From an uncultured bacterium (lineage in GTDB: Bacteria > Bacillota > Clostridia > Lachnospirales > Lachnospiraceae), in NCBI GenBank assembly GCA_947381965.1, contig CANCXX010000004.1, forward strand, positions 62,001-126,000: DNA of 64,000 nucleotides, written 5' to 3'. Below the pieces are notes generated by a model. That model made no database searches. It had not been told where the DNA came from and saw nothing but the letters and a program-made list of their open reading frames with translations. Positions 9,304-37,669 of the stretch are shown in pieces (the first letter of the stretch is position 1; every line of letters starts with the position of its first letter). The translations under genes and the position numbers were made by a program.

Positions 9304-9918
9304 CTATAATTTTGTAACGTTTGTATTGTACATAACCAACGCTTCCCGACAGCAGAAGCTTCCCATTTCGTAGTATCCCTTTGTTATCCGGTTCAGACGG
9401 CTGATGGAAACGGAGCGGTTTGCCCGTTTGGGCTGATCCATAATAAAGCGGATTTCATCTGTGTGATATTCTTCATCCAGCTCCGGATCATCTGTCTCCT
9501 CATAAAAGGGGTCAAAGAGCAAAATTCTGTCATTCTCTATTCCTGTAAGGAGCACATAATGACCTACGTCCAGAAAAAGGTGCAGCAATACCACACCGCC
9601 TTTTGCAAGGGCAGCTGTGACGGGGCTTTCCGGTGTAAGCGTAACATCCTCCCCGGAGTAATGCTCACAGTGAATAGGGAAATTTTTGACCTTTCCAAAG
9701 TGGTTCAGCCAGCATGTGACATAATTCATGGCAGCTGCTGAAGTGCCGTGTTTACATGGCTCGCCTGCTTCATTGTAGGTATCCATACAAAAAGACATAA
9801 TAAATTTTATAATTTCGGGATAAATTTCTTCCCTTTCAAAAAGATAGCGAATGCCGTTTAAAATGGTAACTGGTCCGCAGTCATATTCTGAAGTCTGGTA
9901 ATTTAATAAATTTTTCAT
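9304..9918 (-). CDS. stand-alone C39-like cysteine peptidase domain protein
   Basis: About 204 residues from the chosen ATG, which has GGAG upstream; an in-frame ATG 27 codons earlier gives an unlikely extension. The start LLNYQTSEYDCGPVTILNG matches the Cys-box of C39/C39-like peptidases. The His segment is DVGHYVLLTGIEND and the Asp segment is LLFDPFYEE. There is no membrane or ABC domain and no signal peptide, so it is not an exporter. The gene lies convergent to spoVT and divergent from the PatB gene. The substrate is unknown. Members of this family often process or degrade small peptides. Confidence 0.75.
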   Translation of the reverse strand: MKNLLNYQTSEYDCGPVTILNGIRYLFEREEIYPEIIKFIMSFCMDTYNEAGEPCKHGTSAAAMNYVTCWLNHFGKVKNFPIHCEHYSGEDVTLTPESPVTAALAKGGVVLLHLFLDVGHYVLLTGIENDRILLFDPFYEETDDPELDEEYHTDEIRFIMDQPKRANRSVSISRLNRITKGYYEMGSFCCREALVMYNTNVTKL

Positions 9919-24913: not shown

Positions 24914-25612
24914 ATGATTACAATTGGAATATGTGACGATCAAAATTATATTGTAGATATTTTAAAAGAGAAAATTGGGGTATGTATTAGTGAACATTTT
25001 ATTCAGGTGGAATTTTTAAAGTTTTATTCGGGAAAGGAATTATTGGATTGTGGACAGCAAATTGATTTGCTTTTTCTTGATATTGACATGCCTGGAACCG
25101 ATGGAATTGAAACTGGTATACGTTTTCGTAATAAAAACAAAGATTGTAAAATTGTTATGGCGACTGTAAGAAGCGACCGGATGAAGGAAGCTTTCTTTCT
25201 GGAAGCATACAGGTTTATCACAAAACCATTTGATGATGAAGAGATTAGGGAAGCAATAGATTCATTTATAAAAGGGCGGGTGGGGTGGCAGAAGATTTTA
25301 TTATATGACAGACGTAAAATGGTTGAGATATATCAGCATCAGATTATGTACATACAGACTTTTGACAGTTATACAGAATTTATTATGGCTACAAATATTC
25401 TAAGAAGTGAAAAGTCACTGAAAGAACTGGAGATGGAGCTGGATGGACGTCTGTTTGCCAGAGCTGATAAAAAATACATAATCAATTTTAAAAATATTGA
25501 CAGGTTTGAGAACGGAATGGTATTTATTTTAGGAAAACAGATTAAGGTATCGCGCAGAAGACTTCGTGGGTTTGAAGAACGCTATAGAGAGTTTGACTTA
25601 AGATATCGCTAG
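24914..25612 (+). CDS. LytTR-family response regulator (AgrA-like)
   Basis: 232 residues. The receiver has the phosphoacceptor Asp at about residue 56 (LLFLDIDMPGTDGIE) and the Lys in ITKPFDDEE. Residues ~130-232 form a LytTR DNA-binding domain (IMYIQTFDSYTEF, then ARADKKYIINFKNIDRFE). LytTR regulators bind pairs of short direct repeats, and such a pair lies at 26904-26937 before the peptide operon. It is followed within 10 bp by the GHKL kinase gene. This layout is the quorum-sensing type found with Agr, Com and bacteriocin clusters. Confidence 0.92.
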   Translation: MITIGICDDQNYIVDILKEKIGVCISEHFIQVEFLKFYSGKELLDCGQQIDLLFLDIDMPGTDGIETGIRFRNKNKDCKIVMATVRSDRMKEAFFLEAYRFITKPFDDEEIREAIDSFIKGRVGWQKILLYDRRKMVEIYQHQIMYIQTFDSYTEFIMATNILRSEKSLKELEMELDGRLFARADKKYIINFKNIDRFENGMVFILGKQIKVSRRRLRGFEERYREFDLRYR

Positions 25613-25621
25613 GAGATGATT

Positions 25622-26899
25622 ATGAATTTTACAATAATTGGTAGTATATATATCATGGAAACTGTCAAATATCACATGGCGTTTGAGATGGTTTACAGGG
25701 AAAAGCTGCAAAAAAAGTGGAATTATTGCGTGGGTGGACTGGTAGTTTTGGTTTATATGCTTTATGCAGGTGGAGATGATTTAAGGGATTATATATTAAC
25801 ATATGCGAGTGTTGTTTTGGCAACAGCCTTTGCGATAACTGGAAAGTGTAAGGATAAAATCTTAAAATCATTTTTAATATGTATTCTGATTACAAGTATT
25901 GATGAGGTCCCTTCATCCTTTCTTTCGCAGATAGAATTGTTATTGCAGCATATACAGGATATTCATTATTGGATAAATTTTTTTACCAGTTTATGGGGAC
26001 TGGTAGTTTTAAAAACTGCTTTTTATTTTTATAAAAAAGGAAAAGAACATTTCTTTTTAAGTAGAAATAAGATTATATTTATTGTTATAATTAGCGGATT
26101 ATCGCTTGCACTTACAATCGCTAGTTTGAATGTTGCAAAGGAGTCAGTGGATAAGGGGTTTAAGTATTTTACCGACTTTGTAGTATCAATTGCATATATT
26201 AGCTTGTGCATGCTGTGTTGGTTATTGGTTTATTTTAGAAATCAGCATGAGCAGAAAACAAGAGAAATTGAACTGAAAAGAATGCTGATGGAAGAACAGA
26301 AAAGCTATTATCAGACGTTATTGAAAAAAGAAGATGATACACGCAGATTCCGCCATGATATTGAAAATCATCTTTTATGTCTTGACGAACTGGCAGGGCA
26401 GGGAGACATAGCCAGACTAAAGCAGTATTTACATAATATGTCAGGACAAATAAAAAAGATCCGGAATATGTTGTACACAACAGGGAATACATTTGTTGAC
26501 GTAATTTTAAATGATAAAATCGAACAGTTGGAAAAAGAAGCAACGATAACAGTGAGAGGAATTTTCCCACCGAAACTAAATCTTTTAGAAATGGATATCT
26601 GCACCATTTTTTCGAATCTTTTTCAAAATGCTGTAGAAGAAATCAATCAGCAGGAGGAAGGATGGCTGAAGGTAGTGGTGCAGTCTGGAAAGCAGTATAC
26701 AGAAATTGTGATACAAAATAGTGCGAGAGGGGAAATAACACTGGACAAAAATGGATTGCCATATACGGTAAAGGATAATAAAAAAAATCATGGTTTGGGA
26801 TTACAAAATGTAAAAGCTGCTGTGGAGAAAAACAATGGAAGACTTATAATTTATAGTAAACGGGACAGCTTTGAGGTAAAAATACAATTTCATAATTGA
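25622..26899 (+). CDS. GHKL-type sensor histidine kinase (AgrC/ComD-like)
   Basis: About 425 residues. The first ~210 contain six or seven hydrophobic helices, as in peptide-sensing AgrC/ComD kinases. The H-box is FRHDIENHL at about residue 245, the N-box is NLFQNAVEEI and the G-box is HGLGLQNVKAAVEKNNG, giving the HPK10/GHKL arrangement. It presumably phosphorylates the adjacent LytTR regulator in response to an extracellular peptide. No agrB or agrD is nearby. I preferred ATG at 25622 because AGGAG touches the first ATG (25616). Confidence 0.9.
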   Translation: MNFTIIGSIYIMETVKYHMAFEMVYREKLQKKWNYCVGGLVVLVYMLYAGGDDLRDYILTYASVVLATAFAITGKCKDKILKSFLICILITSIDEVPSSFLSQIELLLQHIQDIHYWINFFTSLWGLVVLKTAFYFYKKGKEHFFLSRNKIIFIVIISGLSLALTIASLNVAKESVDKGFKYFTDFVVSIAYISLCMLCWLLVYFRNQHEQKTREIELKRMLMEEQKSYYQTLLKKEDDTRRFRHDIENHLLCLDELAGQGDIARLKQYLHNMSGQIKKIRNMLYTTGNTFVDVILNDKIEQLEKEATITVRGIFPPKLNLLEMDICTIFSNLFQNAVEEINQQEEGWLKVVVQSGKQYTEIVIQNSARGEITLDKNGLPYTVKDNKKNHGLGLQNVKAAVEKNNGRLIIYSKRDSFEVKIQFHN

Positions 26900-26903
26900 C
26901 CAG

Positions 26904-26937
26904 TAAGGAAGTTAAAGAACCGATAAGGGAGTTTAAG
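26904..26937 (+). promoter_or_regulatory. LytTR-box-like direct repeat
   Basis: Two copies of TAAGGnAGTTnAAG (26904-26917 and 26924-26937) differ at two positions and are offset by 20 bp. They start just after the kinase stop codon and end exactly where the predicted -35 begins. LytTR regulators such as AgrA and ComE bind tandem ~9-bp sites about two helical turns apart just upstream of -35. The regulator assignment is inferred. Confidence 0.7.
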
Positions 26938-26966
26938 TTGAAGGCATAGGTTTATTCTGCTATATA
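26938..26966 (+). promoter_or_regulatory. promoter of the peptide/radical SAM operon
   Basis: TTGAAG at 26938-26943 and TATATA at 26961-26966 with a 17-bp spacer. The LytTR-like direct repeat abuts the -35 and the first ribosome site (AGGAGG, 26987-26992) lies about 15 bp past the expected start point. Confidence 0.7.
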
Positions 26967-27000
26967 TGATTTAAGGATTAAAATATAGGAGGTTAAATCT

Positions 27001-27084
27001 ATGCTTATTTATTTTATATCAGGCGTATCAGCAAGGGGAATATGGGAGGACATAATTCGTTTTTTTTTGGAATCAATTAAGTAG
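27001..27084 (+). CDS. 27-residue peptide, possible signal peptide of the LytTR/GHKL system
   Basis: MLIYFISGVSARGIWEDIIRFFLESIK, split here as MLIYFISGVSARG and IWEDIIRFFLESIK, is read from an ATG that has a perfect AGGAGG at 8 bp spacing. It is the first gene after the LytTR-box promoter. It has a hydrophobic start and an amphipathic C-terminal half, no Cys and no double-glycine motif. That argues against a classical AgrD thiolactone or a C39-processed pheromone. It may be a leaderless inducer, a toxin-like short peptide or an untranslated remnant. The assignment rests on position and ribosome site only. From 27085 to the next gene I see only a 14-codon frame near 27256. Confidence 0.45.
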   Translation: MLIYFISGVSARGIWEDIIRFFLESIK

Positions 27085-27288
27085 CATTTAAATCGTATGG
27101 GTGGATATGACCTTAGATAGGTGCAAATCAATATAGCATAAAGTGATTTTTGCGAAGCAGAAAACAAATGAAGAACAATATTTGAGAATTAGCGCTGAAG
27201 AAGTTTATTTGTAGCATGATAAGATGAGTAATGATTTACAAGGAAGGAAATACAATGTTTAAGTTTAAACATCATGTAAGGTATTTCG

Positions 27289-28457
27289 ATGGATGCTAAA
27301 TACTTTAAAAATAGTTATTGTAGAGAAATTGTACATGGTAATTATACGCTTATTATAGCCCACGATTCCGGGACATACATAAATTTACGTAGCTCAATTT
27401 GGAATAATATTCAGTATTATATGGAGAATAATATAAAAATAGATAAAAAGTATGAGGATATAATACGGGTATTATTAGAATATGGAATTATTTACCAGAC
27501 CTGTAAGGGGAACTTAGTTTATAAATCTATTATGTTACAACTGACAAGTGCATGTAATTTACATTGTATACATTGTTGTGCCCAAATGATTAGCTCTAAA
27601 GGAATAGTAACGATGGAAATTATTAATAAAGTTATCAACTTAAATCCTCAATTACTTATTTTAACTGGTGGGGAACCAATGATGCATCCTCAATTTTGGA
27701 GTATAGCGAAATATATAAGAAAGCATTTTCGCAATGAACTTAGGCTAATGACGAATGCAACATTAATTACAGAGAAAAATATTGGCGATTTATGTAGTTA
27801 CTTTGATTCGGTTGATATAAGTATGGATGGGAAAAATAATGAGGATACTAGTCGTATCCGTGGGGGAGGAGTATATGAACATGCAATAAATGCTATACAC
27901 TTATTAAAAAAATATGATAAGAAAGTTACCGTTTCAGCGGTGGTAGAATGTTTTACAGAAGATTTTGCAAATCAATTTGATGAACTGGCCTTTTCACTGG
28001 GTGTAGATACAATATTAAGAGAACTTGATATCGTAGATGAGGTTATGAAAAATTTTGATGATATTGTTGTGGGAGGAAAAAACATTATATTGAGAATAAA
28101 ATAAGGACAATACAAGAAACTGTTCCTAACAATATAGAATTCCATAAATGCCCTATGGCACGTTATTCTTTATTTTTTGATGTTAAAGGGAACATCTATC
28201 CTTGTGGTGGATTGGCAAAGGATAAGTTCTGTATTGGAAACATTGACGATTTATCTAATATATCTGATTATAATTATTTAGAACAAATACTGTTAAAAGA
28301 AGATAAGTATGCCGAATGCCGTAACTGTATATACAGAGCAGGATGCTGGGACTGTCTGAATGAACTTGAAAATTGTTCTAAGATTCCAGAAGTATTTTGG
28401 GCATATTGTCAGAATCATAAAAAAAAGTGGAAGAATATTTTGGAGGATAAGGTGTAG
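27289..28457 (+). pseudogene. radical SAM/SPASM peptide maturase 1, frameshifted at A6
   Basis: Two frames join into one protein of about 388 residues. Residues ~10-75 resemble a PqqD-like recognition domain (DSGTYINLRSSIWNNI, then VLLEYGIIYQ). The cluster motif is CNLHCIHC (Cys 89, 93, 96), followed by LILTGGEPMMHP. The first frame stops at 28104. The SPASM domain (FHKCPMARYSLFFDVKGN, YPCGG, ECRNCIYRAGCWDC) is in the -1 frame and stays open upstream to the A-run at 28077-28082. The run is set in frame as A AAA AAC, a classical -1 slippery heptamer. One extra A would also restore a single frame. The next gene starts 3 bp after the stop. Confidence 0.8.
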
Positions 28458-28459
28458 GT

Positions 28460-29506
28460 ATGTTTTTTACTATCTGGCTTACAACAGAATGTAATTTGCA
28501 ATGTACATATTGCTATGAAGGAAGTGAAAAGAAGCAAGGAATAATGTCTATGGAGACAGCACAAGCGGTAATTGATTTTATTTATTTGCAAATTATAACA
28601 CAAAAAACAATTTATAGCTATTTGTCAATTGATTTTTTAGGTGGAGAGCCATTACTAAATTATGAAGTCATGTGTTACATAATAGAAAAAGTAAGGTCCT
28701 GGCAGTTGGCAGTGCCCGTATACATAAGCATGACAACTAACGCTACACTATTAACAAAAGAAAAGATTGCTTATCTAATTAATTCGTTAGATGAAATTTC
28801 GGTGAGTATTGATGGTGATAAGCAAACGCACGATATGTATCGAAAATTTTCTGATGGTAGCGGAAGCTATAAAATAGTTATCGAAAATATAAGGGAACTT
28901 TTAAAATATCAAAAATCATTTTGTAATTTTCGAGCGCGTATGACAATTAGACCGGAAACAGCAAAGCTTCTTTATGAAAATGTAAATTATATGATTGACT
29001 TAGGATTTAAAACAATTGTTCCAGTTATGGATAGATTTATTGACTGGACCCAGGAAGAAGCTGATTGTCTTTATACAGAAATGATAAAAATTTATGAAAA
29101 ATTTATTGTAAACAGAAAGGACTTATTTATAGGATTGGTTGATGATATAACTTTAAGGCGGGAGTCGCTTTGCTTGGGGGGTGAAATAACTTTGCAGATT
29201 AGTCCAAACGGTGTTATTTTTCCATGTTCTTATGTAATGGGACAAGATAATTTTGCTTTTGGTGATGTTCAAAACGGAGTTCAAAATGAAAAAAAGGAGT
29301 GGATAAAAAAAATTAATAATATGCCGATGACAGAGTCCTGTAATTTTTGTGCATGGCAATGCTTTTGTAATGGCAACAGGTGTCGTTTATTAAATTATGC
29401 TACAACGGGAGACTTTACTATCCCTTCTGCAGCAACATGCCTTAATGAACGTTTACAACTAAAATTATGCAGAGAGTACTATAGATCAGAGAAACGTAGT
29501 CAATGA
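28460..29506 (+). CDS. radical SAM/SPASM peptide maturase 2
   Basis: 348 residues beginning almost directly with the cluster motif CNLQCTYC (Cys 11, 15, 18), then IDFLGGEPLLNYEV and SIDGDKQTHDMYR. The C-terminal SPASM region has many Cys (LCLGGEITLQISPNG, FPCSYVMG, SCNFCAWQCFCNGNRC) for auxiliary Fe-S clusters. This is the architecture of maturases that form Cys thioether bonds in sactipeptides and ranthipeptides; it lacks an N-terminal recognition domain of its own. It may rely on the recognition domain of the adjacent maturase 1. It is similar in style to Cys-rich-peptide maturases of clostridia (CcpM-like), from memory. Confidence 0.87.
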   Translation: MFFTIWLTTECNLQCTYCYEGSEKKQGIMSMETAQAVIDFIYLQIITQKTIYSYLSIDFLGGEPLLNYEVMCYIIEKVRSWQLAVPVYISMTTNATLLTKEKIAYLINSLDEISVSIDGDKQTHDMYRKFSDGSGSYKIVIENIRELLKYQKSFCNFRARMTIRPETAKLLYENVNYMIDLGFKTIVPVMDRFIDWTQEEADCLYTEMIKIYEKFIVNRKDLFIGLVDDITLRRESLCLGGEITLQISPNGVIFPCSYVMGQDNFAFGDVQNGVQNEKKEWIKKINNMPMTESCNFCAWQCFCNGNRCRLLNYATTGDFTIPSAATCLNERLQLKLCREYYRSEKRSQ

Positions 29507-29666
29507 CCTTCTTCAAAAAAATCATGGAAAGCATAAAGATGATATATGATTGCCTTTACTTAGAGGAGGGATAAATTTTGAAGAGATGTAATATATATGA
29601 AAAATAAATTTTTTACAGGAAAATAGATGCCTACACTAAAATACACAGACAGGACAGAGTTAGAGG

Positions 29667-30797
29667 ATGATTATACTGATAAAGAATGAAGTACATAAAT
29701 TGTTTAAAATAAAAGTATTGCCATTTTCATTACTTGTTGTAATTCTAGGATTAATATATTTAATGATGATTTATGGAGAGTTTGGTTATGATATAAGCAG
29801 GCTGTTAACAACACATTCTGATAAAGGATTAATTGCATATTCCGAGAAAGATGGCAGGCTACTGACTGGACAGGAAGGATATGAACAAAATAAAAAAGTT
29901 GCAAGCATGTATTCTGAGGAAATAAATGATGTATTTCTCGCGCAGCTTCATGCAGATTATAAATCTTCTTCTTATGTGTCATTTGAAAACGGTGAAAGAT
30001 TTTATAATGCTACTTATAGTTTTTTTCAAGATGTATTTAATATAGGGGCAGAAAATTATGGAAAGAGGAATGATGTTTGGGGAAAAGTAAAGGGATCTAT
30101 ACAGTATGGTTTTACTGGAGACTGGGAGGCTTTGGAAAATATTTTACATAGTTTTTTCTTATTGTTTTCTATTTTTATTATTATTTTTGCAGCGCCTCTC
30201 TTTACTTTTGACAGAGAGTGTGGTATGAACGCTTATCTTAACACAGCAAAGAACGGAGGAAGTAATTTATTAAAATATAAAATAGTAGCAATGTTTGGTG
30301 CAATAAATATTCTGATGTTTGTAGTACTTATAGTAATTAGTACTATACATTTTGTACAATATGGATTTGCTAATGCGAATGTAAATATTCAATGCAGTTA
30401 TGACCAAAGATATATTGGTGCAACGATTAATTGTACTATGGGTCAGCTTACTATCTGGACATTGATTTCAGGCATAATTGGATGTAATATGATTCTTCTC
30501 CTGACGGTATTAATATCTATGATAAATAACACTACCCTGGCATCATTTTCAATATCTTTAGCAATAATCTGGCTTCCAGGATATCCTTTTATGCAAATGT
30601 TGGAGAATGACTGTATATTAAGGTTGCTTTTATCTGTAGTACCTGTTAATGCTTTATATGTAAATGCTTTAATTCGGGATATTTCTACATGGAACGCTTT
30701 GTGGGGGATATTTTTGATGCGCCTCATACTATTTGGAATACTATTTTTTATAACAACAATGGTTTGGAGGAAAAAGTATATGCAATTTAATGGATAA
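29667..30797 (+). CDS. ABC-2 type permease of the peptide cluster (first subunit)
   Basis: 376 residues. One helix near the N-terminus (VLPFSLLVVILGLIYLMMIYG) is followed by a ~120-residue extracytoplasmic segment and then five helices. This layout is common in LanE/LanG- or BcrB-like permeases that remove antimicrobial peptides from the membrane. It forms a three-gene set with the ATPase and second permease downstream (spacings 11 and 21 bp). A 160-bp gap with AGGAGG at ~29563 but no convincing gene precedes it. Self-protection is likely by context but not proven. Confidence 0.8.
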   Translation: MIILIKNEVHKLFKIKVLPFSLLVVILGLIYLMMIYGEFGYDISRLLTTHSDKGLIAYSEKDGRLLTGQEGYEQNKKVASMYSEEINDVFLAQLHADYKSSSYVSFENGERFYNATYSFFQDVFNIGAENYGKRNDVWGKVKGSIQYGFTGDWEALENILHSFFLLFSIFIIIFAAPLFTFDRECGMNAYLNTAKNGGSNLLKYKIVAMFGAINILMFVVLIVISTIHFVQYGFANANVNIQCSYDQRYIGATINCTMGQLTIWTLISGIIGCNMILLLTVLISMINNTTLASFSISLAIIWLPGYPFMQMLENDCILRLLLSVVPVNALYVNALIRDISTWNALWGIFLMRLILFGILFFITTMVWRKKYMQFNG

Positions 30798-30808
30798 GGA
30801 GAGAGAAT

Positions 30809-31681
30809 ATGGTTTTGGAATTAAAAGACGTTGTAAAGAATTACAATAAAAGGGTATTAGACCATGTAAACTGTACATTTAAAAGTGGTGTATATGGTCT
30901 GCTTGGCCCAAACGGGTCGGGAAAATCCACGTTAATACGTTTAATATGCCATCTTGAAGTGCCGACAGAAGGAAAGATTTCCCTAGATGGAGTATCCATT
31001 GATCAATTGGACAAACAGTATCGTAGTATATTAGGATATGTTCCTCAAAAAGCAGGCTATTATCCTGATTTTACAGCAAGTGATTATTTAAACTACCTAT
31101 GTATAATGAAAGGAATTCCATACAGAGAAGCAAAGAAACGTATTGAGAATGTGCTTATGCAGGTTAATCTTTCTGATACTGGTTTAATGAAAATAAAAGA
31201 CTTTTCAGGAGGAATGAAGCAGCGGCTTAGTATTGCGCAGGCGATTTTAAATAATCCAGAAATTTTACTTTTGGATGAGCCAACAGTGGGATTAGATTTG
31301 GAAGAAAGAATGAAGTTTAAACAATTTATCAGCGAGTATTCTGGCAATAAAATTGTAATATTAGTAACTCATATTATTAGTGATATTGAAGATATTGGCA
31401 ATGAAATAATTATTTTGGGTAATGGAAAGATAAAGGCGCATTCGACACCAGAAGAGTTGCTTTCTGGCTTAAAAGGAAAAGTATGGGAATGTATTTGTAC
31501 AAAAGAAGAGGCAATTGAGCTGAGAAAAATATATAGTTCTTCTAATGTTAAAGTAAAAGGAAATTGTGTAGAATTACGTTTGATCGCAGATAGCAAACCA
31601 ATGGAAAATTCCTTTATGGTAGAAGGAGATCTACAGGATTTATATTTGTCCATACTCGACAATGTCAAGGCATACAGATAA
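30809..31681 (+). CDS. ABC transporter ATP-binding protein (BcrA/LanF-like)
   Basis: 290 residues. Walker A is GPNGSGKST, the Q-loop is VPQKAGYYPDFT, the signature is FSGGMKQRLS, Walker B is ILLLDEPTVGLD and the switch His is in VTHI. The C-terminal ~70 residues form the variable domain seen in drug- and lantibiotic-exporter ATPases. It lies between two permease genes and should drive them. Confidence 0.92.
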   Translation: MVLELKDVVKNYNKRVLDHVNCTFKSGVYGLLGPNGSGKSTLIRLICHLEVPTEGKISLDGVSIDQLDKQYRSILGYVPQKAGYYPDFTASDYLNYLCIMKGIPYREAKKRIENVLMQVNLSDTGLMKIKDFSGGMKQRLSIAQAILNNPEILLLDEPTVGLDLEERMKFKQFISEYSGNKIVILVTHIISDIEDIGNEIIILGNGKIKAHSTPEELLSGLKGKVWECICTKEEAIELRKIYSSSNVKVKGNCVELRLIADSKPMENSFMVEGDLQDLYLSILDNVKAYR

Positions 31682-31702
31682 AATAAAGGAGAAGACTGCT
31701 TT

Positions 31703-32491
31703 ATGCTGTATTACGAACTGAAAAAATTATTTGGGAAAAAGAGATGTATAGTGTTGTTATTTATACTTTCCTCCATCACATGTTTTATGATTATTATGTT
31801 GTACCAGATGAAAAGTAATTATTATAATAAAATTTCGCCTTTTGAAGAGTTTTTGTCATATTACTGGCTTTATGGTTTGTCATATTTATATATTATCATA
31901 TTTTTTAATATATCTGTTTTTCCGTTAGAAGAAAAAAATGCTATGTCACAGATACTTTTGATTTCACAGTGCGGAAGGGAGAAACTTGCAAAAACAAAAT
32001 TAACGATATCTTTAATAGTTACTAATATTCTTCTCATATGGTTTATAGTATCTTCTTTCTTTGGGTATTTAGCAGTTTTTTCATCAGATTTTCATATACC
32101 AATAACAGAAAATTACGATACAATCTATAATATAAATTCCATTGTGGCTACTTCGGGAGATGTATTTTTAATTTGTATTATTTCCTTTATTGTTACTGCA
32201 AATTTTACGGCAATATTAAGTATATATTTATCTGTAAAAATAAAGAATACATATTTTGTCTGTATATTATTATTTACCGGATGCTTTATGACTATTTTTA
32301 GCCTGAATCCAGAATTTGGAATATTTTTTTCACTTATGCCCTTAGGGAATTATATTGTTACAGCAGATAGCTTGAAAGTACGATTTGTGTTAGCAAACAT
32401 TCCGCTTACTATACATAGTATAAGCCTTGTTGTTGATTTTATACTTATATGTATTTTAACTATAAAGATAAAAAATGTGTATCGAATATAA
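31703..32491 (+). CDS. ABC-2 type permease of the peptide cluster (second subunit)
   Basis: 262 residues with six hydrophobic segments (for example CIVLLFILSSITCFMIIMLY). There is no sequence motif beyond the general ABC-2 permease pattern. It follows the ATPase gene by 21 bp and completes a LanFEG-like transporter with the first permease. It ends 11 bp before a perfect palindrome that separates it from the exporter gene. Confidence 0.78.
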   Translation: MLYYELKKLFGKKRCIVLLFILSSITCFMIIMLYQMKSNYYNKISPFEEFLSYYWLYGLSYLYIIIFFNISVFPLEEKNAMSQILLISQCGREKLAKTKLTISLIVTNILLIWFIVSSFFGYLAVFSSDFHIPITENYDTIYNINSIVATSGDVFLICIISFIVTANFTAILSIYLSVKIKNTYFVCILLFTGCFMTIFSLNPEFGIFFSLMPLGNYIVTADSLKVRFVLANIPLTIHSISLVVDFILICILTIKIKNVYRI

Positions 32492-32502
32492 GATAATTTT
32501 AA

Positions 32503-32533
32503 TACTTTATATTTAGGGAGTAAATATAAAGTA
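32503..32533 (+). promoter_or_regulatory. perfect 13-bp inverted repeat between transporter genes
   Basis: TACTTTATATTTA and TAAATATAAAGTA flank a GGGAG loop. No T-run follows, so it may be an operator, an mRNA processing or stability hairpin, or a weak attenuator before the exporter gene. Confidence 0.55.
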
Positions 32534-32621
32534 CGAGATGATATGTTGTGAAAAGTAAGTTTTATACAAAAAATTTGTGCTTGTGCCCTAATTGGCAGTT
32601 GAGCAAGAATGAGGGATTATA

Positions 32622-34724
32622 ATGAGAAAAGTACCTTTCGTGCCACAGTTAAATTCAACGGAATGTGGAGTTTGTGTATTAACAATGATACTTCGCTATT
32701 ATGGCGCATATTATTCTATAAATGAAATACGTAATCATTTACCTTCAGGTAGAGATGGAGTTACTATACGAAGGCTCATTAACGGCTTTCTAAATTATGG
32801 TATTGACGCTACTGCATACCGTGGAGATGTAGATAGTAAATCTGTTTTACCACTTCCGGCGATTGTTACGTGGGAAGAAGGTCATTATGTTATTATTGAA
32901 CGTATAAATCGCAAATATATGTATATTGTAGACCCTAATTTAGGACGGCTAAAGATAACTTCTGATGAATTTGTTAAAGGATATTCAGGTATAATAATTT
33001 TACTAAAAAAAACAATGCATTTTAAAAAGAGACAAAAGCATACACATTTTAAAAATTCATTTTTCCCCATAATGAAATATTATAGAAATGAATTTATTTT
33101 ATTAATGAACTTATCTTTATTTACACAATTATCTGCACTTTCTGTGCCTATTTCTATAAAATACTTAATTGATGATTTGGTTAGTATGAATGTTAAGTCT
33201 TATCATATATATTTTTTTATTGGTTCTATGTTAGCGAATTCAATTTTTTTATACTTAAAAAAATATTATTTGACAGTACTTGGGGTTAATATTGATCGTG
33301 AAGTAAACAAAAAACTTTTAGCAAAACTCTTGACAGTCAAATACAGTTTTTACGATAACAAAAATAATGCAGATATAATTTACGCATTGGATAATGTGGG
33401 GTGTATAAAAAATATTTATCTTGATAATATTTTAGGCAGTATATTTGATTTGGCTTTAATGTTTTTTATTATAGCATATTTATTTTATACTAATCCTATT
33501 TTGGGCATAATCGCTTTAATTGCTTTACTGCCCAATATTAGTCTTTTAATTTTTACTGATAAGCCTATTCAAAGAGACATTCGGTTAATGATTCATGAGT
33601 ATGAAAATGTTTATGAGCAACAAATTGCAATAATCTATTCTATTTTAGGAATAAAAATATCCGCTATAGAAAATCCCATTTTGGATAAATGGGTGAAAAT
33701 CTATAATCTTTACTATAAAAAAGAAAAAGACTATCAAACTAAAGTTAATACATTTAAAGTTGCATTGACTGCAATAATTAACTTGTCGCCTATTGTAGTA
33801 TTAATGCTTGTGCTTCAATTTACCTCAAAAGGGTTTATGACTATTGGAAGTGTGATGGCGTTTTATACTATGACCAATATGTTATTTGGCTCTGTCAATA
33901 TTATTATAAACAATATACGTAATTTACGAGATAATTTGACTCTGTTTAAAAGAATTGAGGAAATTATGCAGTATGATGAAGAAATTCTATTAGAGCAGGA
34001 ATCTGATGAATTAGATATTAATGGAGATATAAAGATTAATAATATTAGCTTTAAGTATTCAGAGGATGGAGAATACATATTAAAAAATATTTCCTGTACT
34101 ATTAAGAAAGGAAGTAAGGCTGCAATTACAGGTGATTCGGGGTCTGGAAAAAGTACTTTTTTAAAGGTTTTATCAGGGCTATATGAGTTAGAAAGTGGTA
34201 ACGTCCTGTATAATAATAATGAAATGAACTATTGCAATAAAGCGTCTATAAGGAAACAGATTGGTTTTATTGCACAAAATGTTTGGCCCTTAACTCAAAG
34301 CATTAAGGAATATATGCTATTAGGTTTGAACAATATAACAATGGATGATATTGAAAACGCATGTAAAATTGTTAATATACATGATGAAATAATGCACATG
34401 CCAATGAAATATCATACAATTATTTCAGAAACAGGTAAAAATATATCTGGTGGACAGTGTCAGCGTATTATGTTAGCACGAATGGTATTGTTAAAGCCTC
34501 GAATTTTGTTTTTAGATGAGGCGACAAACGCACTGGACACTATAAATGAAAATAAAATTTTAGATTATTTTTTTAAAAATAAATGTACTATAGTTATGGT
34601 CACACATAAGTTAGACTATATAAAAAAATGTGACGAGATATTTATTATGAAGGATGGAAGGTTATTTACTAGTGGAAAATATGATGAATTAGTACAGCAA
34701 GGGTATAGAAATATATTAATTTAA
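32622..34724 (+). CDS. peptidase-containing ABC exporter (C39 domain, bacteriocin type)
   Basis: 700 residues in the PCAT layout. The N-terminal C39 protease has Cys15 in NSTECGVC, His88 in EEGHYVII and Asp104 in IVDPNLG. Six transmembrane helices span about 160-440. The ATPase has Walker A GDSGSGKST near residue 504, signature ISGGQCQR and Walker B ILFLDEAT. Such exporters cut the leader of a peptide after a GG-like site and pump out the core. The six-Cys peptide downstream is the obvious cargo, though its cleavage site is unusual. All three catalytic residues are intact. Confidence 0.93.
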   Translation: MRKVPFVPQLNSTECGVCVLTMILRYYGAYYSINEIRNHLPSGRDGVTIRRLINGFLNYGIDATAYRGDVDSKSVLPLPAIVTWEEGHYVIIERINRKYMYIVDPNLGRLKITSDEFVKGYSGIIILLKKTMHFKKRQKHTHFKNSFFPIMKYYRNEFILLMNLSLFTQLSALSVPISIKYLIDDLVSMNVKSYHIYFFIGSMLANSIFLYLKKYYLTVLGVNIDREVNKKLLAKLLTVKYSFYDNKNNADIIYALDNVGCIKNIYLDNILGSIFDLALMFFIIAYLFYTNPILGIIALIALLPNISLLIFTDKPIQRDIRLMIHEYENVYEQQIAIIYSILGIKISAIENPILDKWVKIYNLYYKKEKDYQTKVNTFKVALTAIINLSPIVVLMLVLQFTSKGFMTIGSVMAFYTMTNMLFGSVNIIINNIRNLRDNLTLFKRIEEIMQYDEEILLEQESDELDINGDIKINNISFKYSEDGEYILKNISCTIKKGSKAAITGDSGSGKSTFLKVLSGLYELESGNVLYNNNEMNYCNKASIRKQIGFIAQNVWPLTQSIKEYMLLGLNNITMDDIENACKIVNIHDEIMHMPMKYHTIISETGKNISGGQCQRIMLARMVLLKPRILFLDEATNALDTINENKILDYFFKNKCTIVMVTHKLDYIKKCDEIFIMKDGRLFTSGKYDELVQQGYRNILI

Positions 34725-34839
34725 TACTTCTCTTACTATATATAGTAATTATAATTATGGTAAATTACAGTATGTATAAATTTTAATGCTTTTGTTTTAT
34801 CATAAAGTTTTCATAATATTAAAAGGTTAGTTATTATTC

Positions 34840-34867
34840 TTGCAAATCGTTAAAAATTATTTGTAAT
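34840..34867 (+). promoter_or_regulatory. possible separate promoter of the precursor peptide
   Basis: TTGCAA (34840-34845) and TGTAAT (34862-34867) are 16 bp apart and would give a 5' UTR of only ~17 nt. GTTA-containing half-sites at 34849 and 34870 are 21 bp apart, like LytTR boxes, but they overlap the promoter itself, so this is weak. Confidence 0.3.
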
Positions 34868-34890
34868 CAGTTAGAAAGGAGGTGAAAAAT

Positions 34891-35073
34891 ATGAAAAATA
34901 TAAGTAGAGTGTTAGTTCCTGTATCTGAGGAGGAAATGGATACAGCTTACGGGAAAAGGTGTGGTGTTTGCCAAAACTGCAAGGAAGTAAATCAAATAGG
35001 GCTTGGTCCCACATGTTGCAGACATGATTGCCTTTTGGGGTTAGCAAAATCATTTATTTCTAAAGACAAATAG
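34891..35073 (+). CDS. six-cysteine RiPP precursor peptide
   Basis: 60 residues from an ATG with AGGAGG at 8 bp spacing. Residues 1-23 are leader-like (MKNISRVLVPVSEEEMDTAYGKR). SEEEMDTAYGK aligns with the LSxxELxxIxGG leader of C39 substrates, but the second Gly is Lys. The core has Cys at 24, 27, 30, 42, 43 and 47 in the pattern CxxCxxC-x11-CCxxxC and ends in a Cys-free amphipathic tail. GPTCCRHDC (39-47) fits GPxxCxxxC, which I recall in ruminococcin C1, and Cys42/Asp46 is a CX3D pair as in ranthipeptides. With two radical SAM enzymes and a C39 exporter, it is almost certainly the modified and exported product. Confidence 0.82.
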   Translation: MKNISRVLVPVSEEEMDTAYGKRCGVCQNCKEVNQIGLGPTCCRHDCLLGLAKSFISKDK

Positions 35074-35789: not shown

Positions 35790-36440
35790 TCACATTTCTT
35801 TATTTTTCAATATCTTAATAGACACCAATATAGAAATAACATACATGATGACAACAAGCATAATAACTAATAACATTAGCAGGACAGGAGAATTGATTAC
35901 TGTAATAAGCAGCTTTCTTTTACCAGCTGGAATTTTTGTAATAAGCAGCAAGGTTATCAAAAATCCTGCAACCGGGATATACATAAATACCCTGCCTTTG
36001 ATAGAGCCAAGTTTATAATATCCGGGCAGTTGAAAAACTGTATAAAGAGCAAAAAGGAATATTCCTATGGCAGCAGCGCTTATAAAATCAAATATGCTAA
36101 TGGTTTCTCCCAAAATAGTTAATATAACAGGGTGAGCAACTAAAGAAAATATCAGTGCAGTGATACCCATGATAATAATAAAAATATATCGCCCAATAAC
36201 CATGTCTCTTTTTTGAATTGGTAAAAAACCGTAAAGCCGTTCCATAGCATTCTTTTCTGTAATAGAAAAGGTATATCCCGTTGTCATGGCAATAAAGCAC
36301 ATAGCAAATGAAATTCCTGTCAGTAAAGAACGGTTGATAGCGGCAAATACAACAGGCAATACCATTGTGAAACATATTGTTTTCACATAGGGCTTTACTA
36401 AAGAAAAATCCAGTTTTGCTGATTTCCAAATATTACTCAT
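35790..36440 (-). CDS. ABC-2 type permease (YtrA-operon type)
   Basis: About 216 residues with six helices. The segment SITEKNAMERLYGFLPIQKRDMVIGRY is characteristic of the ABC2_membrane_5 permease group that accompanies YtrA-type GntR regulators. The start at 36440 (MSNIWKSAKLDFSLV) has AGAGGTGA upstream and overlaps the ATPase gene by 8 bp, so they are translationally coupled. The substrate is unknown. Related Bacillus operons respond to cell-wall antibiotics. Confidence 0.82.
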   Translation of the reverse strand: MSNIWKSAKLDFSLVKPYVKTICFTMVLPVVFAAINRSLLTGISFAMCFIAMTTGYTFSITEKNAMERLYGFLPIQKRDMVIGRYIFIIIMGITALIFSLVAHPVILTILGETISIFDFISAAAIGIFLFALYTVFQLPGYYKLGSIKGRVFMYIPVAGFLITLLLITKIPAGKRKLLITVINSPVLLMLLVIMLVVIMYVISILVSIKILKNKEM

Positions 36441-37293
36441 ACTGTTCACCTCTCTTGCTGGTAAATACCACAATATCGTCAATGGTTGCCGGTTCCACAT
36501 TTAAGTGTGCAAACTGTTTCAAATCCTCGGTTTTGACAAGAGCTTCAAATCCAGTTGAAAAATTTCTGATACCAAGCATTTTTTTACCCAAATCCGCAGA
36601 CAGTTCTTCACACCCGCCTTTGACTATCCTAAAACTATCTATAAATTCATCTTTACCGCCACTGAAAAACAATTCCCCATAACTGATATAGGTAATGTAG
36701 TCAGCAGCACGTTCCAAATCCCCGGTAATATGGGTAGAGAACAAAACACTATGCTCACCATCCTCAATGTATTCAGACAAAATATGAAGAAGTTCATCTC
36801 TTGAAACAGGGTCAAGCCCGCTGGTAGGTTCATCTAATATCAATAACTTTGCGTCATACGAAAAAGCGCAGGCAAGCATAAGTTTCATCTGCATACCTTT
36901 GGAAAGCTCCTTTACCTTTTTAGAGGGCTGGATATGAAATCTTTTCAATATTTCTGAAAATTTTTGTGTATTCCAGTTTTCATAAAAAGCGGATATAGAC
37001 TTTTCAACCTGTGAAACTTTCCATTCATCGCTAAAATAATTGGAGTCAAAAACAACGCCTAATTTTCTTTTTGCTTCCTGTTCGCCTGTAATATTGTCAA
37101 AACCTAAAATTTTTATTTCTCCACTTGTGCGTTTTAACATATTCAGTATGAGTTTGATCGTGGTGGTTTTTCCAGAGCCATTGGGACCGATCAGTCCCAT
37201 AATATATCCTTTGGGCAAAGTAAAGGTAATGTTGTGTAACTGGAAACCCTCAAAAGACTTTGACAGATTTTTTACTTCTAAATAATTATTCAT
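36433..37293 (-). CDS. ABC transporter ATP-binding protein (YtrB-like)
   Basis: 286 residues. Walker A is GPNGSGKTT, the Q-loop region is VVFDSNYFSDEW, the signature is LSKGMQMKLM (the Lys-Gly form usual in this subfamily), Walker B is LLILDEPT and the switch His is in STHI. It overlaps both neighbours by 8 bp, in the order regulator, ATPase, permease. Confidence 0.9.
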   Translation of the reverse strand: MNNYLEVKNLSKSFEGFQLHNITFTLPKGYIMGLIGPNGSGKTTTIKLILNMLKRTSGEIKILGFDNITGEQEAKRKLGVVFDSNYFSDEWKVSQVEKSISAFYENWNTQKFSEILKRFHIQPSKKVKELSKGMQMKLMLACAFSYDAKLLILDEPTSGLDPVSRDELLHILSEYIEDGEHSVLFSTHITGDLERAADYITYISYGELFFSGGKDEFIDSFRIVKGGCEELSADLGKKMLGIRNFSTGFEALVKTEDLKQFAHLNVEPATIDDIVVFTSKRGEQYE

Positions 37294-37669
37294 CTGTTTT
37301 TTCCTCCATTAAGATACTCAAAAGATGATGTAATTCTTCTTCGGAAAGATTAGCAACACGCGCTGCGCTTATTGCTTCCGATAAGTTGTTTTCAATTTTG
37401 CAGATTAGCTGTTCTCTCAAAAGTTCAGAACCCTGTCCTAAGACAAAACAACCCCGTCCTTGAATATTCTTTACAAATCCCTCCTGTTCTAATTCCGTAT
37501 ATGCTCTCGTTACAGTCAAAACACTAATTTTTAATTCCTTAGCAAGTGTCCGCAATGAGGGAAGCGTTTCGTCCTTCTGTAAATCACCGGACATAATGGC
37601 AGATTTAACTTGCTGTTTAATTTGCTCGTATATTGGTATACCCGATATATTTGAAATAATGAGTTTCAC
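37286..37669 (-). CDS. GntR-family repressor, YtrA subfamily
   Basis: 127 residues. Residues 1-75 are a GntR winged helix (IPIYEQIKQQVKSAIMSGDLQ, LPSLRTLAKELKISVLTVTRAYTELEQ). The C-terminal ~50 residues form only the short two-helix dimerisation tail typical of YtrA, with no large effector domain. It is the first gene of the operon and presumably represses it through the palindrome at 37693-37716. Confidence 0.9.
   Translation of the reverse strand: MKLIISNISGIPIYEQIKQQVKSAIMSGDLQKDETLPSLRTLAKELKISVLTVTRAYTELEQEGFVKNIQGRGCFVLGQGSELLREQLICKIENNLSEAISAARVANLSEEELHHLLSILMEEKTDE

What the first reader, a model, noticed from the sequence alone, without database searches (positions are those of the whole stretch)
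24914..35073. Complete peptide-natural-product island with two radical SAM enzymes and a six-Cys precursor
One AT-rich block holds a LytTR/GHKL sensing pair, a regulated promoter, two SPASM radical SAM proteins, a LanFEG-like transporter, a C39 exporter and a Cys-rich 60-residue precursor. The parts list resembles the ruminococcin C cluster as I remember it (two-component system, two sactisynthases, FEG transporter, peptidase exporter). Here there is a single precursor at the far 3' end and its cysteine pattern differs. This is the best candidate in the window for an undescribed antimicrobial or signalling peptide.
Basis: partly seen in the sequence, partly recalled or inferred. Interest (0 to 1): 0.85.

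Follow-up and report, generated by a model that had tools for sequence, protein, structure and literature searches.

The report
Paired-radical-enzyme peptide cluster, new exporter
A bacterium carries genes that probably make and export a small cross-linked peptide; relatives use the same pair of enzymes but a different cutting and export system, and one enzyme gene here is split between two reading frames.

Summary
The parts list is real: LytTR/GHKL pair, two radical SAM genes, ATPase with two membrane partners, a C39 peptidase-exporter (the one C39 match in this genome) and a 60-codon, 6-Cys ORF, the only frame among 1251 short candidates in the window with a strict double-glycine-type leader signature. 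The ruminococcin C analogy fails: the enzymes are 26% identical and score best against other models.

They belong to a pair spread in Clostridia (one StsB-like, one PapB-like enzyme). I found 17 other loci with it; 17 of 17 have a QhpE-like S8 protease nearby, 0 of 17 a match to the window's C39 domain, and 17 of 17 a short frame with the motif CxxDC. The window's 60-mer has CxxDC too (C43-RH-D46-C47), so it is plausibly the pair's substrate (2.5-6.3% by shuffling). The window looks like a variant in which protease, leader and exporter were exchanged for a C39 system while the motif stayed. PapB joins Cys to Asp, so such a link is predicted. rSAM1 is split between frames at an A-run; decay, error or programmed slippage is open. 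No relative of the precursor was found. New variant of a known kind.

The parts
24914..25612 (+). LytTR-type response regulator
   Evidence: Response_reg 62.3 bits, LytTR 51.0 bits
25616..26899 (+). GHKL sensor kinase, distantly AgrC-like
   Evidence: HATPase_c_5 64.2 bits; AgrC model 36 bits, far below cut-off 500
26899..26937 (+). direct repeat, two 19-base copies at 20-bp period (15 of 19 equal, my count), candidate LytTR site
   Evidence: a repeat of the same period lies just after the kinase stop in L104 (read by eye)
27001..27084 (+). 27-codon ORF with a GGAGG ribosome site, first ORF behind the repeat; role unknown
   Evidence: sequence
27289..28104 (+). rSAM1, front part: N-terminal domain plus radical SAM core, CxxxCxxC intact
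   Evidence: PF04055 59.9 bits; StsB model 71.5 bits, cut-off 625; C89, C93, C96 invariant in 9 of 9
28062..28104 (+). stretch in which the rSAM1 frame must change by -1; holds an A-run forming A_AAA_AAC in phase (28077-28083)
   Evidence: stops mapped
28155..28457 (+). rSAM1, rear part: SPASM domain in the -1 frame (frame open from 28062)
   Evidence: PF13186 26.3 bits; five Cys of this piece invariant in 9 of 9
28460..29506 (+). rSAM2, PapB-like radical SAM/SPASM enzyme, intact
   Evidence: PapB model 192.3 bits, cut-off 340; C11/15/18 and seven SPASM-region Cys invariant in 11 of 11
29667..30797 (+). membrane protein, probable ABC permease
   Evidence: no family match; hydropathy
30809..31681 (+). 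ABC ATPase, LanF-like, probable self-protection
   Evidence: TIGR01188 176 bits (cut-off 312.45), TIGR03740 150.6 bits (cut-off 309.75)
31703..32491 (+). membrane protein, probable ABC permease
   Evidence: no relevant family match (one NCBIfam hit at E 0.018, read as chance); hydropathy
32622..34724 (+). C39 peptidase-containing ABC exporter (PCAT), C15/H88/D104 present
   Evidence: PF03412 110 bits; residues 3-691 of 700 align with 4ry2, 282 bits; the one PF03412 match in the genome
34891..35073 (+). precursor peptide, 60 aa: double-glycine-type leader with K at -1, core with C24 C27 C30 C42 C43 C47 and CxxDC at 43-47

Best explanation
The island is a RiPP cluster built on an rSAM1+rSAM2 pair that is spread in Clostridia. 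The LytTR/GHKL pair switches on the operon. rSAM1 and rSAM2 act together on the 60-aa precursor; rSAM2, which is PapB-like, joins a Cys to the Asp of the CxxDC motif (C43 or a neighbouring Cys to D46) by a thioether and perhaps links other Cys too. The C39 exporter cuts the leader behind the G-K site and exports the 38-residue core; the ATPase and its two membrane partners protect the producer. It differs from its relatives by having a C39 exporter and a double-glycine-type leader in place of an S8 protease, an ABC exporter without a C39 match, and the relatives' own leader. Shown by sequence: gene content, family placement, motif, leader register, no S8 found. Inferred: the chemistry, the cut site, the pairing of enzymes and precursor, protection and activity. 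Whether this strain makes full-length rSAM1 is open.
For: rSAM2 lies inside the clade of S8-type pair enzymes (100/99 for the 19-row clade; its place within the clade is not resolved). Pair conserved in 17 other loci, 17 of 17 with S8 within 8.5 kb, 0 of 17 with a C39-domain match within 9 kb, same strand, on the stretches held, 17 of 17 with a CxxDC peptide (14 by the ribosome-site scan; L014, L022 and L129 by the frame scan). In 16 aligned precursor candidates the only invariant columns are C, D, C of CxxDC; the window 60-mer has it, and hhalign, given only the 60-mer and that alignment, pairs CCRHDCLLG with that stretch (p 0.008, but probability only 5). The other two CxxDC in six frames of 24-40 kb lie in stop-to-stop frames of 27 and 46 codons. 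The leader register V-12 S-11 E-8 M-7 A-4 G-2 is unique to this frame in the window in its strict form and fits the -12/-7/-4 rule for PCATs (PMC10885120, passages). One C39 match in the genome; no match to the relatives' S8 in it (a search without a positive control). L104 has regulator (149 bits), kinase (155), rSAM1 and rSAM2 in the same order. PapB links Cys to Asp and in vitro accepts Cys-Xn-Asp with n 0-6 (PMC9413430, passages); TrnC/TrnD show two rSAM enzymes acting as one complex (PMC12093266, passages).
Against: CxxDC arises in this peptide in 2.5%, 4.0% or 6.3% of shuffles by scheme, so the enzyme-precursor link is moderate. A review passage says that PapB mostly failed when its motif was shortened to Cys-X2-Asp, the spacing found here (PMC8172795), against the in vitro result above. 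The precursor has no relative in 396 other family genomes (three weak hits, read as chance), 36 other genus genomes, plasmids, viral contigs (31) or phages. rSAM1 is split between frames and lacks about 11 residues of the N-terminal domain. The leader ends GK, while PCATs are described as cutting after GG, GA or GS. rSAM2 scores below the PapB cut-off. The precursor is 5.4 kb behind rSAM2, unlike in the relatives.
Confidence: 0.58

Rival explanations
1. Two unrelated modules lie side by side. The PCAT and precursor make an unmodified, disulfide-bonded double-glycine bacteriocin, and the rSAM pair is a decaying relic that has lost its own precursor, its S8 protease and its frame.
For: rSAM1 frame break and 11-residue gap; no S8 match in the genome; behind rSAM2, where 14 of 17 relatives carry their peptide, there is only a strong ribosome site and a 9-codon frame; six Cys suit disulfides.
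Against: rSAM2 is intact with all cluster Cys, and the rear rSAM1 frame stays open with its SPASM Cys kept; the precursor carries the pair's invariant motif.
Confidence: 0.25
2. A ruminococcin C-type sactipeptide cluster, with Cys to alpha-carbon thioethers made by two equivalent sactisynthases.
For: Similar parts list: precursor of about 60 residues, two rSAM genes, ABC transporters (PMC6779426, passages).
Against: The enzymes are 26% identical, RumMC 74 bits against cut-off 720, six Cys not four, one precursor not five.
Confidence: 0.05
3. Same chemistry, but the product is a signal sensed by the GHKL kinase, not an antimicrobial.
For: Kinase is distantly AgrC-like; two related plasmid clusters carry genes annotated as AgrB and cyclic lactone autoinducer next to their kinase.
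Against: Those clusters keep a separate autoinducer, so the rSAM product need not be the signal; a LanF-like ATPase points to self-protection.
Confidence: 0.12

Closest known systems
PapA/PapB (freyrasin, ranthipeptide)
   Same: rSAM2 matches the PapB model best (192 bits), as all 11 scanned rSAM2 relatives match it; Cys and Asp in the motif
   Different: Below the model's cut-off of 340; PapA has six CX3D/E motifs and one enzyme, here one CxxDC and two enzymes
Thuricin CD (TrnC+TrnD)
   Same: Two non-identical rSAM/SPASM enzymes, shown there to act as one complex
   Different: Sactipeptide with two precursors; there both enzymes are modelled with RRE domains, here the rSAM1 N-terminal domain matched no RRE model
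S8-type paired-rSAM clusters with CxxDC peptides (L013, L104, L146 and others; no name found)
   Same: Same enzyme pair, same motif, in L104 the same regulator-kinase half
   Different: S8 protease and an ABC exporter without C39 match; other leader; peptide next to the pair in most
QHNDH maturation (QhpD/QhpE)
   Same: rSAM enzyme making Cys-Asp/Glu links (PMC8172795, passages); the S8 proteins of two relatives match QhpE best (101 and 97 bits against cut-off 165)
   Different: There the substrate is an enzyme subunit; no S8 was found in the window
AC3_0185 family rSAM-modified Cys-rich RiPP (TIGR04118)
   Same: 1 of 16 relatives' peptides matches weakly (E 0.0097)
   Different: 15 of 16 and the window precursor do not
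Ruminococcin C
   Same: rSAM peptide cluster with ABC transporters
   Different: See rival 2

Membership tests
PapB ranthipeptide maturase (NF047865) | score over curated cut-off 340 | tested here: not met
   192.3 bits, best model
Ranthipeptide | Cys thioether to a non-alpha carbon | not testable with these tools
   needs mass spectrometry or NMR
Ruminococcin C | maturase over RumMC cut-off (720) | tested here: not met
   74 bits for rSAM2
Ruminococcin C | two near-identical maturases, several 63-aa four-Cys precursors | tested here: not met
   26% identity; one six-Cys precursor
S8-type CxxDC paired-rSAM clusters | rSAM1+rSAM2 pair of this clade | tested here: met
   rSAM2 inside the clade, 100/99; rSAM1 adjacent
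S8-type CxxDC paired-rSAM clusters | CxxDC precursor | tested here: met
   C43-D46-C47, at 2.5-6.3% chance
S8-type CxxDC paired-rSAM clusters | QhpE-like S8 protease | tested here: not met
   none near the pair and no match in the genome (no positive control)
PCAT / double-glycine peptides | C39 domain with Cys-His-Asp | tested here: met
   C15, H88, D104 aligned with 4ry2; the triad is recalled
PCAT / double-glycine peptides | leader ending GG, GA or GS | tested here: not met
   register fits but the site reads G-K
RRE (PqqD-like) domain on rSAM1 | match to a known RRE model or structure | tested here: inconclusive
   PqqD not among the Pfam matches of 9 rSAM1 proteins at E up to 1; one matched HTH_57 at E 0.26; 3 weak PDB hits, none named an RRE; fold job not returned

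The most novel reading that the evidence does not exclude
A two-enzyme radical SAM module that makes a Cys-Asp cross-link at CxxDC has been moved from an S8-processed to a C39-processed peptide: leader, protease and exporter were exchanged together while only the cross-link motif was kept, and rSAM1 output is set by -1 slippage at A_AAA_AAC that decides whether the SPASM domain is made.
Probability: 0.07. Interest if true: 0.75.

Novelty: new variant of a known kind. Interest (0 to 1): 0.5.

Why it matters
If the motif-substrate link holds, the motif CxxDC, not the leader, is what this enzyme pair keeps across a change of leader, protease and exporter. That would be a natural case of module swapping and a handle on which residues the pair joins. 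It also points to a family of Clostridia clusters, found here in 17 other loci, for which I saw no description in the listings of nine paper searches (open-access library only) or in passages of six papers; the other listed papers were not opened.

Tried and rejected
Tried without result: direct genome contigs and viral-contig scans with rSAM2; precursor searches; the three weak precursor hits were opened and read as chance: two have stops inside, the third lies opposite a 601-codon frame; homologues of the two membrane proteins (41 and 55 for the first, 54 for the second, 57 for both); Rfam and tRNA scans (14, 15: nothing); a clean empty site (nearest congener G745 shares only the neighbouring glycosylase gene with this window in the 16 kb compared); promoter-like sites near the precursor (4 found, 2.7 expected), not used. 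The Hungate1000 bacteriocin paper (PMC13289728, passages) holds no occurrence of 'radical SAM'. Considered and rejected: a stimulating RNA structure behind the A-run (z -0.64, 52 of 200 shuffles at least as stable), so the slippage reading has only the heptamer; in-phase heptamers of all kinds would be expected 0.17 times in a stretch of that length, and an A-run is also where errors and mutations fall. A truncated rSAM1 start was considered; the window start lines up with L147, so it was dropped. The PqqD/RRE label for the rSAM1 N-terminus was my own assumption and was not confirmed (93, 99). L022 and L023 come from one genome, and L015 and L034 are close relatives, so 17 loci are fewer independent cases. 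The tree used 37 of the 80 proteins, chosen by me. The CxxDC motif was first seen in 16 peptides, most of them picked by ribosome site and at least two Cys; one search then used the motif as the search key, so the 17 of 17 is not blind. Among 654 short ORFs with at least five Cys in all loci held then, 9 have CxxDC, real peptides and repeat copies included.

Full report
OBSERVATION. The window lies in contig C4 of a 4.3 Mb draft of 92 contigs (completeness 96.66, contamination 7.31). The precursor ORF starts best at ATG 34891 behind a strong ribosome site. Among 1251 candidate starts giving 30-110 aa it is the only frame with six Cys and a strong site, and the only frame with a strict double-glycine-type signature (nested starts counted once).

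RELATIVES. rSAM2 matches in 3 other genomes of 397 family genomes searched (own included) at E 1e-40, the front piece of rSAM1 in 4 others of 392 order genomes at 1e-25, and rSAM2 in 15 others of 391 class genomes at 1e-38. In the genus, 37 genomes were searched and 7 others match at 29-30% identity, in longer proteins (open frames of 464-507 aa). A scan of the named-genome collection with a four-sequence profile kept 80 loci. Two plasmid clusters of Paraclostridium sordellii were added.

THE PAIR. Among the loci examined 80 rSAM2-like proteins score at least 100 bits; 18, the window included, have an rSAM1-like gene within 3.5 kb on the same strand. The 17 others each have an S8 match within 8.5 kb and none a protein that matches the window's C39 domain within 9 kb; the window is the reverse. 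The C39 test used one query sequence, so a distant C39 domain could be missed. The S8 proteins of L013 and L014 match QhpE best, below its cut-off. In a tree of 37 of the 80 proteins the window's rSAM2 falls inside a 19-row clade with L024 and the 17 (100/99); its place inside is not resolved, and the best identity is 39%.

THE MOTIF. Sixteen precursor candidates share one set of invariant columns, CxxDC, and mostly a leader of the type KIxKIxDK. By two scans each of the 17 pair loci has such a peptide. The window has three CxxDC in six frames between 24 and 40 kb; the other two lie in stop-to-stop frames of 27 and 46 codons. Shuffling the whole precursor gives CxxDC in 2.5% of trials, the core 4.0%, the core with Cys fixed 6.3%. 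A profile comparison pairs the same nine residues (p 0.008, probability 5). I read this as moderate support that the 60-mer is the substrate of the pair. A second, more distant class with PapB-like enzymes and S8 also has CxxDC peptides (L025, L029, L032, L035, L097).

EXPORT. The exporter is a full PCAT with Cys15, His88 and Asp104 and holds the one C39 match in the genome. Counting back from K22, the leader has V-12, S-11, E-8, M-7, A-4 and G-2, the register given for PCAT leaders (PMC10885120, passages), but Lys at -1. So exporter and precursor fit each other except for the last residue.

REGULATION. A 20-bp-period direct repeat starts at the kinase stop codon; L104 has one of the same period at the same place (by eye). 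The two plasmid clusters have genes annotated as AgrB and autoinducer behind the kinase. None was seen in the window; the genome's one AgrB match is on another contig.

THE SPLIT GENE. rSAM1 changes frame by -1 between 28062 and 28104. Both pieces keep their cluster Cys. The rSAM1 genes of the 17 relatives are single frames. Decay, sequencing error and programmed slippage all remain; no stimulating structure was seen.

JUDGEMENT. A RiPP cluster, yes; ruminococcin C, no. It is best seen as a C39 variant of an S8-type paired-rSAM family, with a predicted Cys-Asp link by analogy with PapB (PMC9413430, passages; PMC8172795, reports poor PapB action at this spacing). Chemistry, processing and activity are inferred.

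Noticed in passing
27001-27084: 27-codon ORF (MLIYFISGVSARGIWEDIIRFFLESIK) with a strong ribosome site directly behind the direct repeat; could be a linear signal peptide.
   Followed up: no
29560-29610: Strong ribosome site followed by a 9-codon TTG frame (MKRCNIYEK) where 14 of 17 relatives carry their peptide; possible relic of a lost S8-type precursor.
   Followed up: partly
27255-27299: 14-codon ORF with its own ribosome site that overlaps the rSAM1 start.
   Followed up: no
35790-37669: Minus-strand genes that look like a GntR-type regulator, an ABC ATPase and a membrane protein, in the same AT-rich block (read by eye, not searched).
   Followed up: no
L024:9355-9863: Blautia sp. Marseille-P3201T has five CxxDC frames near a PapB-like enzyme and S8; three lie in a row at 9355-9863.
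   Followed up: partly
L025, L029, L032, L035, L097: Second class of CxxDC clusters with PapB-like rSAM enzymes and S8; four of the five show CLNDC, CMNDC or CLTDC, L035 has CKKDC.
   Followed up: partly
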